Of a stretch of 9,523 nucleotides of DNA, positions 323-9,523 are shown piece after piece (the stretch's first letter is position 1; the number at the start of each line of letters is the position of its first letter). The notes beneath the pieces were generated by a model. The model worked only from the letters and a program-made list of their open reading frames with translations. It searched no databases and was not told the DNA's origin. A program made the position numbers and the translations under genes. The DNA is taken from assembly GCA_021129445.1 (NCBI GenBank), contig JAJOLG010000025.1:1-9523 (forward strand). The letters are read 5' to 3'. The DNA comes from Candidatus Altimarinota bacterium (GTDB taxonomy: Bacteria; Patescibacteriota; Gracilibacteria; GCA-2401425; JAJOLG01).

Positions 323-394
323 ATGAAAAAAATTTTTCAAAAAACAATTTCGGCAATTTTAATTTTTGCAATTTGTTCAACGAATGTTTTTGCT
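323..394 (+). other. Signal peptide coding segment of the giant protein
   Basis: Residues 1-24: KK at positions 2-3, a hydrophobic core rich in Ile, Leu and Phe, then a small-residue exit ending VFA before LNG. This matches a Sec signal peptide with type I cleavage after Ala24. C18 is not followed by a lipobox-like context, so a lipoprotein is unlikely. It also fixes the start: no other in-frame ATG nearby would leave a usable signal peptide. Confidence 0.85.
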
Positions 395-3300
395 TTGAAT
401 TGACAAATTCAGGACGAATGAAAATTTGAAGATTGAAAATTATTTGCGATTTTGTTGGATGAAAAATTATCTGAAAATACGAAAATTTTTGATTGAGTAA
501 AAAAATATTGAAAAAATATTGCAAAAAAATTTCCAGATTTAACTCCAAAAATTTTTTTAATTGATGAAAATCAAACTCAAAAAGAAATTTTTTCAAAGCT
601 TGAATTGCTTTATTTTAACGGGTTAAAAGAGTGAAATGCAAAATTATTTTTAGATTGATTTTTTGCAATTTGAGATATTCCAATTCCTGAAATTGAAATT
701 TGAGAAGGTTTTGAGACAAAAAAAAGTTTTTTTCCTTACACGGATTTTGAAGAAAAATTTTTTGTTTTTGATAATAAAAAACAAAATTTTGTCAGACAAG
801 AAGAAATTTCTGAGCAGAAATCAGAAGTATTTTTTTGATTTTTGAGAAAATCTGAAAAACAAAAGGATTTGTGAGATGAATTTTATGAAAATTATTTTGA
901 TAAATTAAATAATTTTTATGACGAATGAGTAAAAAATTTTGATGAAAATAAGATTTTTTTGGCAGATTTGGATGAGGAGAGAAAGTCTGCGAACGAAACT
1001 TTGATGAAGCAATATGAAAAAGCAAGCGAGTTTCAGTATGAAATTGCATATCAGAAATTTTCAAGTGAGTTTGCGAATAAATTGCAGGATGATATGGTTA
1101 AAGATTTGTTGGAGCCAGTTTGTGCGACATATCAGTCGGATGAAGAAAAAAAGATAGGTTTGCCAGCAAGTGAACATTGTGTTGTGCCAAATAAAGAGGC
1201 TTTGACTGCAAAAATTGGGAATTCAGATTTAATTTCGGTTTTTCAGGTCAAAAAACTTTTACCTGAATATTACGATGTTGTTGAGAGTTATGTTAAAAAA
1301 GCAAATGATTTGATTTTTAAAAGTTGAGAAAAAAAAGCAAATTTAGAAACAATTCCAAAAGAGATTTTTATAAAAGATTTTTTAGCGAGAGAATATATAA
1401 AAGCTGTAAATCAAACAATTGAGGAGAGGATAATTAGCGATTTACAGAATTATGTTGATGGTGTAAATCAAAAAGTTGAGGAGTTGTATTGTTGATGTTT
1501 ATGGTGATATTCTTGGTATGCCTATAATCAGAGAAAATATAATTGTAATAATTATACATATAATTATACAAACTGACAATATAATATTTGTCAAAATGTT
1601 CCAAATAAAATCATTTTGGAAATAAATAATTGACCAACAAAAAAAGATATAAAAAATCAAATTGAAAATTGATTAGAGAAAAAGAATTGATTATCTTTAA
1701 AAGTTGATCAAAAAAATAATATTTATTTTAAAGATGATTGGAATGAATTTAATTTTTATTTACCAAATTTATTTGAGTCGGAGTGAAATTTGGATAAATA
1801 TGTTGATAAATACTTGATTTATTTAAATTGACATGTAAATAAATTTTCTGATACAGAGTTTCGTTTAGAGTATTCTAAATATTTATATGAATACCACAAG
1901 CAAGAACTTGGTTATTATGATGGTAATTTTTGATGAATAACTACAAGTAATAATTATGTAAACACAGGAAAAAAACTTACTTTTGATGAATTTATTCAGG
2001 GAAAAGGTAAAAAAAGTATTCCAAAAAGTTTTTTTACCGACATAATTCAACAATCAAAAGATGATTTTAAATATTTTTTTGATTGGATGAAAGTAAAAAA
2101 ATGAGAAAATTTTGAATATCGTGATATAAATTCAAAAAGAAAAAAAATTTTGGAGGATAAAATTTTTCAAAATAAGGAAAAAATTTATCAAGCAGAGCCT
2201 GAAAAAAATTTTTCCAAAATAGATAATTTTTCAACTCTTTATTTTAGATCTTGAAATTTTTGAAAGTGAGAAAATTTTTATATTCAAGATATTAATTGGT
2301 GGGAAAAAAATCGTAATTCAAAATTTGAATTAGCATATTTTTGAGATTGAAATAAAAATATTGATGATGAATTAAAAGAAAAATGTTGATCTTATAATTG
2401 AGTTCCTTTGCCGAAGTGGTTTGGTGCGATTAAATGTTGGATTAAAGATATTTCAAAAATGTGAGATAAACAGATTTGTTGATGATGAAATAAAGATTCT
2501 TGGGAAAATTTTTGGAATTGAAAAGAATTTACAAATGATATAAATGAAAGAAATATTGATTTTCAGACAGCAGAGGAGTTTGAAGAAGCGATAAATCCAC
2601 AAGAACAAAAGGATTATGAGTTTTGAGGTGATAAGGATTATATTGCAGATTGAGAAATTTTGCAATTTACAGTTGCTCAAAAATGAGTTTGAATAATAAA
2701 AGACTGACATTATAATTCTGTTCAGCTTGAATTTAAAACAGTTGATAAAGATGGAAATTTGGTTGATTTTACTTGATATGCGAGGTTTGAATTTGTTAAT
2801 GATAAATGAAATGCAAATTGATTGATTGCAGATGAGGATTTATTTTTTGAAAATTGAGTTGCAACAACTGGATTAGTGACAAAAGAAAAACGTCCTTATT
2901 TAAAATTGTACAGACCTTGATTTAAAAATTGAACTTTATATTTGTCGTTTTCAAAGTCTTGGCTTGCAAAAGATTTAGTTTCTGTTGATATTCCTGATGA
3001 TGTCGAAAAAATTGATATAAAGTGAGCAAATTTTTATTCTGCATATTTGTTTTGAAATAAATATGTAAATTTAAAAAATTGAGTTGCTTTTGATTTGATA
3101 AATACTTGATCAACATTGGCTATTTTTAGTGCAATTGATGATTATAATTTTTATAATTGGGCTGATGATAAAATTGTAAAAATTGATAAAATTAAAAGCA
3201 GAATTGATGATAATTATTTTTGAATTTGATTTTGAGATGATGAAAAATCAATGATGAAGTTTTTATCATGAGATTTTATTTGAAATTCTGTAAAAACAGA

Positions 3301-6109
3301 AAATTGAATTTTTTCTGCGGTTTTAGGAGATCCGATGATTTCTTTTGAAAATAAAAAAGATGAGGCTTGATTTACAAAAACAATTTGAAAATCAGTTTAC
3401 AAATTTTCGTGAGATATTGATAAAATCGAGATTATTGATTATAATTCTGATTGACAAGAAGATTTTTTAGCTTTTATGAATGATTGATTTATTAAACTTT
3501 TTAAATGAGAAAATTGAAGTTTTACGAAAAAATGAGATTTGGCATATTTTTCTTCAAATGTTGAAAAGCAATTTGTTTGAGATATTGATTGAGATTGAGA
3601 TCAGGATTTTATTGTAAAATTGTACGATTGACGAGAGGTTTTTTTTGAAAATAAAGATGAAAAATTTTCTAAAAAACTTTTGGGGCATTCTGTGATTGAA
3701 AATTATTTGCAATGAAAAACTGAGAGATTTGATTTGCCAAAAAATGTTTTAAATGAAGATGATGCAAAAAATCAAGAATATTGAAAAAGTGATATTCAGT
3801 GAATTTTGGAAAAAGCTTGGGGAGTTGATAATGATTTGGAATACGCTAATTGATATGATGAAAAAACTTTAGATGAAAAATTACAAGAATTAAATTGAAA
3901 ATTATCTGATGCTGTGGATTTAGTGTCAAATTTAACCTGTATGGGATGATCTTGTATTTCTTCACCTGTAAACTGGGCTTTTATGGTGCCATGAGCAGTT
4001 AATGTTCCATGATTTTTAAAACAAGCAATTTCCTTTCCTACTGCTCCAGTTCCATGATCACCTGTATTTTGAATTGTTTGGTGGCCAACTCCTCCAGATT
4101 GAACATATAAACCATTTCCATGCTCTTGACTTGCATGTTATTGACCAGCTCCCTGAATTCCAACTAATAGATATTATATTTCACCAACAATAACTTGATG
4201 ATTATGATTTGCATATTGTAAGTGACCACAATATATTCCTTTCTGAAGCCCATCAGCAATGTGTTTTGTGACAGCATTACCAGTAAATCAATTATGAATT
4301 TGTAAACAAACAAGTTTAACAGGTTTAGCAATGTGAGCTATTTGATGATCACCTTTTAAGTCTTGATGAGGTGATTGAAAAAATTCAGTATTTTCTCAAA
4401 TGCTTTGATCTTGATGAATTCCAGAAAATGATGATGCTTATGTTATTTGATTAGATAAAACAAAAATTAAAATTTTTGATGAAAATAATAAAACAATGAA
4501 TCCGTTTTTTTCTTGATTCTTGACAAGATGGTGGGATAAACAAGTAAAAGAAATTGTTGTAAATTGACTTGATTTTCCAGTTATAAAATTAATTTTACCA
4601 GATTTTAATTCTTGATTTGAGACATTGAAAAGTTCTTGGGATAAAATAAAATTAAAAGATAATAAAAAAATTTTTAATTTTGAATCAAATTTAAAAGATG
4701 AAAAAGAAAAATTAAAAAATTATCAGAAAAGTTTAGAGAAAAAAAATGATAAAAAATGATTGTTTAAAACAATAAAATCTGATAAATTGAAAACTGATAA
4801 ATTTATTGAATTTAAATGAAATGTTCAGTGAACTGCAAAAACAATTGAAGAATCTTATGATGAGATTTTTAAACAAATTGATAATCTACCAATTTTACAA
4901 TTAAAAAGAGAAAAAATAAATTTAGATATACCACGGATAAATCCATACAAACTAAATTCTTTAATTATTCAAATAAATGATTTCATTGAAAGAAATGAAG
5001 AGATTTTAAATGATTTGCCAAAAGATCAGTTTCCTTATCTAAGGAATTACATCAAGCAATTGAAAAAAAATCTTGAAGTTTTAAAAACATACAGAGATTT
5101 TCCGAAGGAGATAATGAAATACAGATTTTTATTGTCAAAATATATTTGAGATGTTATTTCTTTGATTGACTGTTTAACAGATTATTTATGATGATGGATA
5201 GCTAGAAATAAGAAAATTGCCATAGCTTATATAAAACTTTATTATGAAATAAAAGCAATTTTAGAATTACTGAATAATATTTCTTTGGTTTTTGATGATT
5301 ATAAAAATTCTTGTTCAGCGTGTAAAGCTAGTTCTTATTTATCAAATTTTTCACTTGCGCAACTTTTTATGTCTTTGATTCCTGAGCCTCCGGTTATAAA
5401 AATGCCAAAATGGCCAGATATTATTATTGATTTGTCGGATGTTCAACTTTGAATTACTGTAAATATTCCAGAAATTAATTTTAGAGTTAGGGAAGTTTAT
5501 ATTCCAAATTTAGACTTACCAACTTTGTGATTTTGAAATTTGAATTTACCAATGTTAAAAATTCCACCTTTTGATTTAAAATTACCTGAATTACCAGAAA
5601 TTCCAGCTGTTGAAATTCCAAAATTGCCAGATTTACCACCACCACCAAAATTACCTGAATTGCCATTTTTAGACTCAATAAATAGTTTAATGGATACGAT
5701 AAAATTGGTTTTAAAGCTATATTGTTTAATTTTTCAAAAATGATTATTTGTTTATCCTGAAAATACAGTAAAACAAATTGTTGAATGACTTACAAATAGA
5801 TCATCGTCAAATTTTTTGCCACTAGATTTTCTCTTTTTACAATTCCCAAATATTTCATATCCAACTTTAAAGTCAATAAATATTGATACACATTTGAATT
5901 TAAAATTTGAGGATAATACAATGTATGAAAAATTACAAGAAGAGGCTGATAAATTAAATATTTACAAAAAACTTTGAGAGGATATAAATAATGTTATTTG
6001 AACTTTCAATGAAAAATCATCTGAGCTTTGAAGTGAATTAAATGAAAAAACAAATCAGGATGTGAAGATTTGAGATGATTATAAGGTGAAACCGGTGGAA
6101 TTTAAGTAA
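323..6109 (+). CDS. Giant secreted multidomain protein with VCBS/FG-GAP-type repeats (table 25)
   Basis: With TGA read as Gly this frame is open for 1928 codons and ends at TAA; I read every codon and found no internal TAA or TAG. By hand count about 117 of its glycines are TGA and only about 20 are GGN. Residues 1-24 are a classic signal peptide (two Lys, hydrophobic core, cleavage after NVFA), so the protein is exported. Residues 30-145 alternate predicted strands and helices and include AIGDIPIP (115-122) and FFPYTDF (136-142). Cys-rich patches follow: C390/C392/C408/C423 in a Tyr/Asn-rich stretch, C688/C705/C719, and a Pro/Gly/Cys-rich block at 1206-1352. Residues about 770-1000 look beta-rich and Ig-like. 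Two Asp-rich loops at 1039-1047 and 1087-1095 mark VCBS/FG-GAP-type repeats. Residues 1434-1680 are mainly helical with a CxxC (1664-1667), and 1714-1783 is a Leu/Pro repeat tract. No C-terminal membrane anchor or sorting signal is visible. Function is unknown; a large adhesin, a surface-associated enzyme or a contact protein are all possible. No Shine-Dalgarno sequence is visible. Confidence 0.92.
3410..3667 (+). repeat. Two VCBS/FG-GAP-type calcium-loop repeats
   Basis: Within the giant protein, residues 1030-1066 and 1086-1115 align with a 48-residue offset between their loops. The first loop is D1039-x-N-x-DG-x-x-D1047 and the second D1087-x-D-x-DG-x-x-D1095. Each is followed by a hydrophobic strand, a [N/Y]DG turn and a strand ending near Phe. 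This DxDxDGxxD loop is the calcium site of integrin-like FG-GAP and VCBS repeats, which normally build beta-propellers. Only two copies are clear; more degenerate blades may lie upstream. The glycines of the DG pairs are TGA codons, strong internal evidence for UGA = Gly. Confidence 0.75.
3938..4378 (+). other. Cys/Pro/Gly-rich module of the giant protein
   Basis: Residues 1206-1352 differ sharply from the Lys/Asn/Asp-rich rest of the protein. The block starts TCMGGSCISSPVNWAF and carries about nine cysteines, many Pro and Gly, and few charged residues. Its DNA is visibly less A-rich. The even spread of Cys in an exported protein suggests a disulfide-stabilised domain. I cannot name a family; the composition change suggests a separately conserved, or possibly acquired, module. 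Confidence 0.55.
5462..5671 (+). repeat. Leu/Ile-Pro repeat tract near the C-terminus of the giant protein
   Basis: Residues 1714-1783 consist of short irregular units of the form [L/I]P-x(1-3), for example LPELPEIP and IPKLPDLPPPPKLPELP. The same triplets (cca gaa, tta cct gaa) recur in the DNA. Such a tract should form an extended polyproline-like rod and could act as a spacer through the cell wall or S-layer, or as a binding surface for proline-recognising partners. It has drawn no large repeat expansion here. Confidence 0.7.
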
Positions 6110-6217: not shown

Positions 6218-6246
6218 GACGAAAAATAATTTTTTTTGAGTAGAAT
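6216..6246 (+). promoter_or_regulatory. Candidate promoter for the SLH surface-protein gene
   Basis: TTGACG (6216-6221) and TAGAAT (6241-6246) resemble -35 and -10 boxes, separated by 19 bases, slightly longer than the optimal 17. The start point would be near 6253, giving a leader of about 20 bases before the ATG at 6272. The -35 overlaps the T tail of the upstream terminator, a compact stop-and-restart arrangement. Confidence 0.45.
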
Positions 6247-6271
6247 TCTTTGATTAAAAAACAAAAATAAA

Positions 6272-8284
6272 ATGAAAAATTTTTTCAAAAAGGTAAAAAA
6301 TAATTGGTTAAATTTTGAAAATAAAATTGAAAACTTGGATTCGAGGGACAAGGTAAGTATTTTGATTTGAATGTTTTCTTTTTTGATTTTGATGAATTTT
6401 ACAGATTTTTCGTGATTTAAAGCGGATATTTTTTCAAGTTCAACTTGAACACAAGTTGAGGAAAGTTATGAGTCTGATATTCAAAATGAAGAAAAAACTA
6501 TTGAAAAAGAAAGTGAGCAAAAAGATAAAGTTGAAATTGTAAATGATCAAAAAAATACAGAGGAAATTGAGCAAAATACAAGCGAAGACCAGGTTTCTGA
6601 AATTTCTCTTGAAGAGCAAAAAAAGATTGAAGAGCAAATTATTTCTGATCAAAATCAAGAAATTCAAAATGAAATTTTAGCTGAAAATTTAAATGAAAAT
6701 AAGGAAATAAAAATTGTTGAAAATCCTGTTTTGGTTGAAAATAGTTCTGGTGCTTGAAAAATTTCTGATTGAGAAATAATAATTTCTGAAAATATTTCTG
6801 GTGAAGAAAAAAAAATAGATTGATGAAAAAATTTTTCTGGAACTTGAAAAAATATTTGAGAATGAAGTGAAAAAAATAATTGAGAAAAAGATTTTTTTAA
6901 CGATGAAAAAAAATCTTTTTTGACAAATATTTGATTAAAAAAAGTTGATAAAAATGCAATTGCTTTGAAAAAACTTGAAGAAGATGAGAAAAATAATCAA
7001 ATTGAAGTTGTGGTTGAGACAAAGGTTGAGGATTTACAAAAAACAGAAAACATTTCTCAAAATGATGATGAAAAAAATATTTTAAATGAAGAAAAATCTG
7101 ATCTTGATAAAAAAATTGAATGAGTAATTTCTGATATTCAAAATATTGAAGAAGAAAAAAAACAACAAGCGATAATTGAGGAAAAAGCAAAACAGCTTGC
7201 AGAGGAAATGCTTGCAGAACAAAAAAAATCTCAATGAATCTCTGAAAGTGAATTTATGGTTTCATGAGCAGAAAGCGAGGCTTACAATGAAATGGTGAGA
7301 AAAAAGAAAGAAGAGGAGTTAAAAGCAAAATATGAAAAACAAATTTCTGAACAAGAAAAAGAGAAAAAAGATTTAGCTGATAGGCTGGAAATGCTTGAAA
7401 ATAAATTGAAAAATCTGCAAACAAAAACTCCTGAACAAATTGCAGAGGAAAAACAACAGGTTTCGTTGAGACAAAAACAAAAAGAGGATGAAGAGAAAAG
7501 ACAGAAAGAATTGGCTGAAAAAAAAGCAGAGGAATTAAAAGTTAAACAAGCAGAGCTTGAAAAAAAGAAAATTGCAATTGAAAAATTTAACCATGATACT
7601 GATTGAGATTGACTTTCTGATCATATTGAAAAAATTTTGGAGACAAATTCAAAACTGATTGACACTGATTGAGATTGATTTTGAGACAAAAGAGAGATTG
7701 AAAAATTTTTTGATCCAAATTCAAAATGATGAATTCTATTTTCTGATATTCCAGAAAGAAGTGTAAAAAGAGATGTTATCATAAAATGAGCAAAAAAATG
7801 ATTGGTTTTTGTAAGAACTGGTGATAAATTTTTGCCTGATGAGGAAATTTATAGAGATGAGGCAATAAAAATTATTGTTTCTGCAATGTATCCGTCAGAA
7901 ATTTACAGAGAAGATGAATTTTTTGAATGAGTTGAGTTACATTCTGATGTTTCAAGAAATGATGATTTTGCAAGATATTTAGCAATTGCAATTAAACACT
8001 GAATTTTAAATTGAATTGTTGCAGATAATTTTAATCAATATTCAACTTTTTCTAGGGCAGATTTTATTTCAATTTTGGTAAAAGCGACTTGAAAATGAAC
8101 ATCGAAAAAGAAGTTAAAATGGGTTGATACTGAATATGACAACTGGTTTACAGGATATTTGTCAAAATCAAAAGAATTATGAATTGTGAGAGTTGAAACT
8201 TTTAACAGGATTTTCCCATTAAAATGAATTTCAAGATATAAAGCAGTTTTATATGCTTTAAGAGCAAGTAAATATTGAAATTAA
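6272..8284 (+). CDS. Membrane-anchored coiled-coil surface protein with TSP3 calcium repeats and SLH-like domains (table 25)
   Basis: A 670-aa frame from ATG to TAA, with over 30 TGA glycines and about five GGN. Residues 1-27 are Lys-rich and probably cytoplasmic; 28-43 form one hydrophobic segment, either a signal anchor or an uncleaved signal. Residues 50-290 are a low-complexity Glu/Lys/Asn/Gln linker. Residues about 291-438 are a long charged coiled coil. Two TSP3 motifs, DTDGDGLSD (442-450) and DTDGDGFGD (464-472), precede three SLH-like repeats at about 490-540, 559-610 and 617-667. The first opens FSDIP and includes a YRDEAIK segment, the second ends with FSRADFISILVKATG, and the third has the aromatic WFTGYL segment. 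SLH domains usually bind secondary wall polymers or S-layer, so the likely role is to bridge the membrane and outer envelope; this is inference. No Shine-Dalgarno sequence is visible. The next gene begins two bases later, suggesting co-transcription. Confidence 0.92.
7595..7687 (+). repeat. Two thrombospondin type-3 calcium-binding repeats
   Basis: Residues 442-472 of the SLH protein hold DTDGDGLSD and DTDGDGFGD, 22 residues apart, with an E...TNS linker similar to the usual 'E..GTNP' element and a closing FDPNSK after the second. In DNA, ACTGATTGAGATTGA occurs in both. All four glycines inside the DGDG loops are TGA, and Trp at these sites would destroy the calcium site. This is the cleanest proof of the code in the window. 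Confidence 0.85.
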
Positions 8285-8286
8285 TT

Positions 8287-9523
8287 ATGCAAGTACCAAG
8301 TTTTATTTTAAAACACACCGAGATAAAAGGTGAAAAAATGTGGCAATTTTATATTTTAATCGCTTGATGGACAGCGATTTATACTGCGATGTCAATTTCT
8401 GTTTTGCTTTTTTTACAACATGTCTTTGATAGTTTGTTTATTGCGTGATTAGCAATTGCAATTTGAAATTCTGTTTCATTTTTTTTAGATTGATTTATAG
8501 CTTCACTTCAAAAAAGATTTCATTCAAGGCAATTATTTTTATCTTGAATTTGATTAATGATTATTTCGTTGGTTTTGTTTATTATTTTTTCAAATCCAAT
8601 TTTTGTATTTTTTGCTGCAATAATTTTTTCAGTTTCATTTGATATTGTTGATATTACTTCAATGTCTTATATTATGGCAAAAACTTTGCCGGCAAATTAT
8701 TGAATAGGTTTATCATATAAAGAAACTTCAAGATGAATTTGACTGCTTTTTTGACTTTTAATTTCATGAATCTTGATTTCATCATCTTATTTTTTATGAG
8801 ATTTATCAGATTGAACAATTAAAATGACAGCGGAAATGCTAAAAATTCAAAATGCAAATTTTGAATCTAGTTTATTTATTTCTCAAATTTTATTGATGGT
8901 TATTTTATTGGCATTGTTTTTTTTCGCATTTATTCTTTTTGATAAAGATGCTAAAATTTTATCAAAAGATTATGTGGTTGCATCATTTCAGGAATTAAAA
9001 TCAGAAACAATAAAATGATTAAAAAATTCTGCAATTTCCATAAAACAACAGGCTTTTGATAAGGTTAAAAATTTAAAAAACTCAATTGAATTAAAATCAA
9101 CTTATGAAAAAAAATCTTTAAATTGGAATGAGATTTTTTGAGAAATTTTTATTTGAATTGCTTTGTTAAAAGATATTTTTGTAAATAAAAATAAAAATTT
9201 TTCATTATTTTGGTTAATTATTGTAAGTACAATTTTTTCTTACTGGGATACATTTTTATGAACATTTTTCCCTTTATTTTTTACGGAATTTTTGAAAGCA
9301 CAAACGTGATGGTTAAGGGAAATTCCTGGTTCAATTTTATCGCTTCTTTTAATTTTACCAGTTTTATGACTTTTTCCAGTTATGTCAAAAATGGGAGATA
9401 GGTTTTGAAGATTTAAATTTATCTACTGATGACTTTGAGCAACTGCATTTGCAGTTTTTATGATGTGAATTATGGATTATCAAAGATTTACAATGTTTAT
9501 TTTTATGTGATTGGTGACTTCTG
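8287..9523 (+). CDS. MFS-type membrane permease (C-terminus beyond the window, table 25)
   Basis: The frame stays open to the right edge, giving 412 residues. About ten hydrophobic segments are visible: six, then a charged loop of roughly 80-90 residues (about 219-300), then four more before the sequence ends. A six-plus-six helix plan with a long central loop fits the major facilitator superfamily. MGDRFGRF (369-376), between the eighth and ninth segments, matches MFS motif A (GxxxDRxGRR-like), and a degenerate version (LDGFIASLQKRF) follows the second. Substrate cannot be inferred. Glycines are nearly all TGA, and Arg is only AGA or AGG. The start is uncertain: ATG 8287 follows the upstream stop by two bases, but ATG 8338 has a Shine-Dalgarno-like site. 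Either way, no promoter is seen and co-transcription with the SLH gene is likely. Confidence 0.85.
8328..8333 (+). promoter_or_regulatory. Shine-Dalgarno-like site before an internal ATG of the permease gene
   Basis: AGGTGA lies 4 bases before the ATG at 8338, which is in frame with the ATG at 8287. It is the only Shine-Dalgarno-like sequence found before any candidate start in the window. It favours translation of the permease from 8338, at MWQFYILIAG, which would place the first membrane helix directly at the N-terminus. The 17-codon stretch between the two ATGs also has codons that are less typical here (CAC, ACC, GGT). Confidence 0.45.

What the first reader, a model, noticed from the sequence alone, without database searches (positions are those of the whole stretch)
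323..6109. 1928-residue exported protein with a mosaic of unrelated-looking modules
A single gene fills over 60% of the window in a lineage with small genomes. The order is signal peptide, alpha/beta region, several Cys patches, Ig-like beta region, calcium-loop repeats, a Cys/Pro/Gly module, a helical region and a Leu/Pro rod. No single known family covers this. Large surface proteins are plausible effectors of the epibiotic or predatory lifestyle described in these phyla, but that role is inference.
Basis: partly seen in the sequence, partly recalled or inferred. Interest (0 to 1): 0.7.

Follow-up and report, generated by a model that had tools for sequence, protein, structure and literature searches.

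The report
Class-wide giant surface protein, shortened copy
The 1928-residue protein is the shortest known member of an exported giant protein (typically about 4200 residues) shared by most of the Gracilibacteria/Peregrinibacteria class, in some relatives encoded beside type IV pilus genes and probably used for cell-surface contact with other microbes, though its function is untested.

Summary
The gene is real: window 323-6109, code 25, 1928 aa, 117 TGA codons that align with conserved glycines. It is not a one-off mosaic. It is a shortened orthologue of a single-copy giant found in most genomes of its class (30 of 40 genomes searched; 26 same-class genomes against none of 342 others in the phylum). 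Complete relatives are 3279-7861 aa (median 4201) and carry the same modules in the same order. The window copy lacks their last ~1000 residues, which in 19 of 22 code-11 members carry S-layer-homology (SLH) anchors.

The N-terminal alpha/beta domain (aa ~36-205) resembles the non-catalytic subdomain of gingipain proteases; the conserved histidines are lost here. The FG-GAP repeat is confirmed. The helical/Leu-Pro part matched no solved fold.

In part of the code-11 lineage the giant sits just downstream of pilB-pilC-prepilin genes, and is followed in about 17 loci by four conserved exported proteins. The window genome keeps pilus genes and one partner, unlinked.

Best reading: a surface protein working with type IV pili in cell contact. 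Family membership is firm; function is inferred. Large extracellular proteins in these bacteria were already reported; I found no description of this family or its pilus linkage.

The parts
323..6109 (+). giant exported protein, 1928 aa, genetic code 25 (shortened orthologue of a 3.3-7.9 k-residue family)
323..394 (+). putative signal peptide (aa 1-24, VFA^L)
   Evidence: sequence; hydropathy; not tested with a signal-peptide predictor
428..937 (+). N-terminal alpha/beta domain, aa ~36-205, gingipain A-subdomain-like fold
   Evidence: AlphaFold pLDDT mostly >80; VIA-align to RgpB 4ief_D Z 11.0, 1cvr Z 8.3
938..2557 (+). helical and Cys-containing region aa 206-745, conserved in relatives (with large insertions there), poorly modelled
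2600..3199 (+). Ig-like beta region aa ~760-959
   Evidence: relatives hit Big_1/Invasin_D3/Glyco_hydro2_C5 in the region N-terminal of FG-GAP; no hit in the window protein itself
3203..3682 (+). FG-GAP / calcium-loop region aa 961-1120 (FG-GAP_3 at 1039-1098)
   Evidence: Pfam PF13517 E 4e-6; conserved block
3938..4327 (+). Cys/Pro/Gly module aa 1206-1335 with conserved Cys 1206, 1211, 1299, 1314, 1327
4622..5326 (+). helical region aa 1434-1668 with long helix
   Evidence: AlphaFold model; no convincing fold match
5381..5659 (+). Leu/Pro rod aa 1687-1779 (PKWPD ... LPDLPPPPKLPEL), family signature
   Evidence: invariant columns
5900..6106 (+). C-terminal coiled-coil start aa 1860-1928; relatives continue ~1000 aa further, window copy stops
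6236..8284 (+). neighbour: TM + coiled coil + TSP3_bac + SLH protein (ORF opens at TTG 6236; likely start ATG 6272); not shown to be the missing anchor
8275..9522 (+). neighbour: MFS transporter, cut by the contig end

Best explanation
The protein is a Sec-exported surface giant of the Gracilibacteria/Peregrinibacteria class. An N-terminal protease-like but probably non-catalytic alpha/beta domain, an Ig-like stretch and an FG-GAP calcium-loop region form a binding head; disulphide-stabilised Cys/Pro/Gly, helical and Leu/Pro rod modules form a stalk; in most code-11 relatives C-terminal SLH domains pin it to the wall. It probably acts together with type IV pili and four small exported partners in attachment to another cell or surface. 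The window copy is a minimal version that keeps head and stalk but has lost the C-terminal anchor region. Shown: family, module order, class restriction, C-terminal loss, SLH anchors in code-11 relatives, pilus-gene linkage in part of that lineage. Inferred: export, head/stalk geometry, partnership with the pilus, adhesion.
For: Class-wide orthologues with collinear blocks; 122 confirmed loci, titles almost all Gracilibacteria/Peregrinibacteria/Peribacteria. SLH in 19 of 22 code-11 C termini. PilB, PilC and prepilin genes immediately upstream on the same strand, preceded by a PilN-like gene in G016 and a PilO-like gene in G025; PilB-PilC-prepilin in L060, and a prepilin just upstream in L062, L077, L091, L125, L132. 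Four-gene exported partner set downstream in 17-24 code-11 loci. Partner 3 occurs in 20 of 30 giant-bearing and 2 of 10 giant-less genomes (Fisher two-sided p 0.025, not corrected for kinship). The window genome keeps PilB/PilC-type pilus genes (two PilC genes) and a partner-3 homologue. Vampirococcus lugosii, of the same broad group, has giant surface proteins thought to attach to prey (PMC8080830).
Against: No functional data. Pilus linkage is confined to part of the code-11 lineage; the window, its order-mate G001 and the code-25 clade lack it. Code-25 relatives have no detectable SLH (0 of 31) and the window copy has no C-terminal anchor, so how it stays on the cell is unknown. Partner 3 was not found in 10 genomes that have the giant.
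Confidence: 0.45

Rival explanations
1. PilY1-like role: the giant is a pilus-tip or pilus-priming component rather than a wall-anchored adhesin.
For: Sits directly after the prepilin gene in G016, L060, L062, L077, L125, L132; FG-GAP propeller-type repeat and calcium loops; Saccharibacteria T4P-2 needs a beta-propeller protein, PilX2, likened to PilY1 (PMC12206443).
Against: No PilY1/PilC propeller family hit in Pfam up to E 10; C-terminal SLH anchors in relatives point to the wall; linkage absent in window and code-25 clade.
Confidence: 0.2
2. Structural role: building block of the fibrous or S-layer-like coat or of a stalk, without specific binding.
For: SLH anchoring in relatives; length, rod and Cys modules; fibrous cell surface attributed to giant proteins in Vampirococcus.
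Against: One copy per genome in most genomes and a complex, ordered set of globular modules are unlike repetitive coat proteins.
Confidence: 0.2
3. Degenerating copy: in this 0.67 Mb genome the gene is eroding and no longer works.
For: Shortest of all members, C-terminal ~1000 residues absent and not found elsewhere in the genome; long branch; conserved His lost.
Against: 1928 codons without a stop, all core blocks and most conserved Cys/Pro columns kept.
Confidence: 0.12
4. The N-terminal domain is an active C25-type cysteine peptidase.
For: Fold resemblance to gingipains.
Against: Only the A-subdomain is matched (1cvr residues 8-135); no C25 Pfam hit; the three conserved His columns of the family are F, N and N in the window.
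Confidence: 0.03

Closest known systems
Giant membrane/surface proteins of Vampirococcus lugosii (PMC8080830)
   Same: same broad lineage, sizes 1392-4163 aa, integrin, PKD and other adhesion-type domains
   Different: paper does not define this family or its gene neighbourhood in its main text; orthology of a given protein not checked here
Large Cys-rich extracellular proteins of Ca. Peribacter riflensis (PMC4736985)
   Same: large, exported, Cys-containing, two annotated with FG-GAP repeats, proposed attachment role
   Different: described as a set, not as this orthologous giant
PilY1 / PilX2 pilus adhesins
   Same: next to pilin genes in some relatives, propeller-type repeat, calcium loops
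   Different: no PilY1-family match; SLH anchors in relatives; much longer
Gingipain RgpB/Kgp (peptidase C25)
   Same: A-subdomain alpha/beta fold (Z 11.0, rmsd 2.4 A, 123 residues, 15% identity)
   Different: catalytic B-subdomain and dyad not found
SLH-anchored surface proteins
   Same: C-terminal SLH repeats in 19 of 22 code-11 relatives
   Different: window copy has none; none detected in 31 code-25 members

Membership tests
Class-restricted giant family (this work) | helical + LPxLP rod module with conserved PxxPKWPDI and LPDLPPPPK | tested here: met
   profile E 5e-105 in window genome (the window sequence is part of the profile)
Class-restricted giant family (this work) | collinear N-terminal, FG-GAP, Cys/Pro/Gly and rod blocks | tested here: met
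SLH-anchored surface proteins | SLH domains in the protein | tested here: not met
   window protein: none; relatives: 19 of 22 code-11, 0 of 31 code-25
PilY1/PilC pilus-tip adhesins | PilY1-type propeller domain by HMM | tested here: not met
   no such Pfam family at E up to 10; FG-GAP only
PilY1/PilC pilus-tip adhesins | gene next to pilins | tested here: inconclusive
   yes in part of code-11 relatives; not in the window
PilY1/PilC pilus-tip adhesins | located at pilus tip, needed for assembly | not testable with these tools
   needs experiment
Peptidase C25 (gingipain) | A-subdomain fold | tested here: inconclusive
   VIA-align Z 11.0 / 8.3; Foldseek alone gave no match below E 0.05; no C25 Pfam hit
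Peptidase C25 (gingipain) | catalytic His-Cys dyad | tested here: not met
   conserved His columns of the family are F171, N196, N435 in the window

The most novel reading that the evidence does not exclude
The giant, the four exported partner proteins and a PilN/O-B-C-prepilin set form an undescribed, class-specific cell-contact apparatus that has been dispersed and trimmed in reduced genomes such as this one.
Probability: 0.3. Interest if true: 0.8.

Novelty: new variant of a known kind. Interest (0 to 1): 0.55.

Why it matters
How Gracilibacteria, Peregrinibacteria and Absconditabacteria hold on to host or prey cells is unknown. A single-copy giant that most of the class shares, that the rest of the phylum lacks in this sample, and that in some genomes sits in a type IV pilus locus with four conserved exported partners, is a concrete candidate for that machinery. 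The 1928-residue window copy marks a natural minimal core, more tractable for expression than 4000-residue relatives.

Tried and rejected
Split-giant idea (the missing SLH anchor moved to the next gene, 6236-8284): its TSP3+SLH part does match giants' C termini, but its best matches in relatives are separate 533-1071 aa proteins, so not supported. Missing C-terminal region elsewhere in the genome: not found with the code-25 tail profile, which itself missed one code-25 genome, so remote remnants could be overlooked. Sequence relatives with solved structures: none for aa 26-745, only insignificant hits for aa 1145-1928. Fold search of aa 1145-1928: best Z 6.0 over 84 residues, not informative; this does not show the fold is new. 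Foldseek alone did not list gingipain in its top 50. Independent origin of code 25 in the window lineage: suggested by grouping with code-11 G001 (SH-aLRT 97), but long branches meet and one code-25 clade is not rejected (p-AU 0.106).

Full report
Observation. The ORF at 323-6109 exists as described: 1928 aa in code 25, 117 TGA codons, stop TAA, followed by 126 bases before the next ORF opens at TTG 6236. In code 11 nothing longer than 122 aa is open there. TGA reads as glycine: in the code-11 relatives, 36 well-conserved columns under window TGA codons are Gly and none is Trp. The window is a complete contig (C30) of a 0.67 Mb, 77-contig genome, 94.8% complete.

What it is. Pfam finds only FG-GAP_3 (aa 1039-1098, E 4e-6); NCBIfam nothing. 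A protein search of 40 genomes (the window's own included) found it in 30, mostly in very long ORFs. BLAST of the window protein against 19 reconstructed relatives gives the same blocks in the same order: aa 1-400, in some 670-730, 960-1120, 1190-1440 and 1515-1910. A multiple alignment with 73 relatives shows conservation along most of the window protein. Complete relatives number 55: length 3279 to 7861 aa, median 4201, in both code-11 and code-25 genomes. So the window gene is the shortest member seen here, not an unusually large one.

Distribution. With a profile of the rod module, 26 genomes matched among 379 drawn from the phylum; all 26 are of the window's class (37 sampled), and none of the 342 outside the class matched. 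Within the class, family f6 has only weak matches in proteins of 1.0-1.35 thousand residues, and f9 has none. A scan of 84,980 species gave 122 confirmed loci; the 80 kept have titles almost all Gracilibacteria, Peregrinibacteria or Peribacteria.

C terminus. Relatives go on for roughly 1000 residues or more after the rod. In 19 of 22 code-11 members this tail carries SLH domains and in 11 TSP3 repeats; in 31 code-25 members no SLH was found. The window copy stops after the rod at a coiled-coil start, and the code-25 tail profile finds nothing in the window genome. The next gene has a TM helix, coiled coil, TSP3 and SLH, but its closest matches are separate proteins, so I do not claim that it replaces the anchor.

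N terminus. AlphaFold models aa ~36-205 with high confidence. Before the fold search the sequence pattern (GDIPLPVV, PYTDF, EIWHG) had suggested a C25-type domain. VIA-align then ranked gingipain RgpB first (4ief_D Z 11.0, rmsd 2.4, 123 residues; 1cvr Z 8.3 over chain residues 8-135), above caspases at 6-7. Only the A-subdomain is covered; that the catalytic residues of gingipains lie in the B-subdomain is from my own knowledge. The three well-conserved His columns of the family are F, N and N in the window, so a catalytic dyad is not met there. Foldseek by itself gave no convincing match, so membership stays inconclusive. The helical and Leu/Pro part gave no usable match.

Neighbourhood. In code-11 genomes the giant is followed by four conserved exported, Cys-containing proteins (~197, 228, 600, 383 aa) in 17-24 loci; Pfam gives no significant match for the set tested. 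Upstream, in G016 the order on the same strand is PilN-like, a 189-aa protein without Pfam hit, PilB, PilC, prepilin, giant; in G025 it is a 412-aa protein without hit, PilO-like, PilB, PilC, prepilin, a 272-aa ORF, giant. L060 shows PilB, PilC and prepilin; L062, L077, L091, L125 and L132 show a prepilin immediately upstream; G012 has PilC and prepilin five and four genes upstream. In the code-25 clade and in the window this linkage is not seen: the window genome has PilB- and PilC-type genes after two upstream ORFs on contig C8 and a second PilC gene on C45, and a partner-3 homologue on C25. Over the same 40 genomes, partner 3 occurs in 20 of 30 with the giant and 2 of 10 without (two-sided Fisher p 0.025, kinship not corrected).

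How it probably works. Sec export, a binding head (protease-like fold, Ig-like stretch, FG-GAP region), a Cys- and proline-stiffened stalk, wall anchoring by SLH in many relatives, and cooperation with type IV pili in contact with another cell. Only the first-order anatomy and the linkage are shown; the rest is inference. Published work attributes attachment to giant or large surface proteins in Vampirococcus (PMC8080830) and Peribacter (PMC4736985), and host binding to a propeller-bearing pilus protein in Saccharibacteria (PMC12206443), which makes the reading reasonable but not proven.

Verdict. Real, and ordinary in the sense that it belongs to a conserved family; but the family itself, its pilus linkage and the natural minimal form seem undescribed in the papers searched.

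Noticed in passing
window 323-6109 versus G001 (L054): The only other genome held of the window's order (G001) appears to use code 11 while the window uses code 25, and the two giants group together (SH-aLRT 97). Either TGA=Gly arose twice or the placement is a long-branch artefact; one origin is not rejected (p-AU 0.106).
   Followed up: partly
window 6236-8284: Envelope protein with one N-terminal TM helix, long coiled coil, TSP3 repeats and C-terminal SLH: the layout of a membrane-to-wall tether.
   Followed up: partly
L064, L094, L138: In three code-25 contigs a same-strand ORF of 851-1275 aa directly upstream forms one cluster and, in L064, reads as the giant's N-terminal part: split genes or frameshifts.
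   Followed up: no
G036, G196, G329, G026, G402, G305; G013, G032: Family f6 has proteins of 1.0-1.35 thousand residues that match only the helical/rod module; f14 genomes have ~640 aa proteins matching only the N-terminal domain: modules exist on their own.
   Followed up: partly
L070, L082, L093, L101, L107, L138 downstream of the giant: Tandem small exported proteins, mostly 120-150 aa, with two hydrophobic stretches (VirB2/TrbC-pilin-like by eye) near the giant in code-25 genomes.
   Followed up: no
L099 +1, L134 +1: A prepilin-type gene (1079 aa in L099; cut by the contig end in L134) directly downstream of the giant in code-25 genomes.
   Followed up: no
G003:C6 (L052+L053): Largest member, 7861 aa in one ORF.
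   Followed up: no
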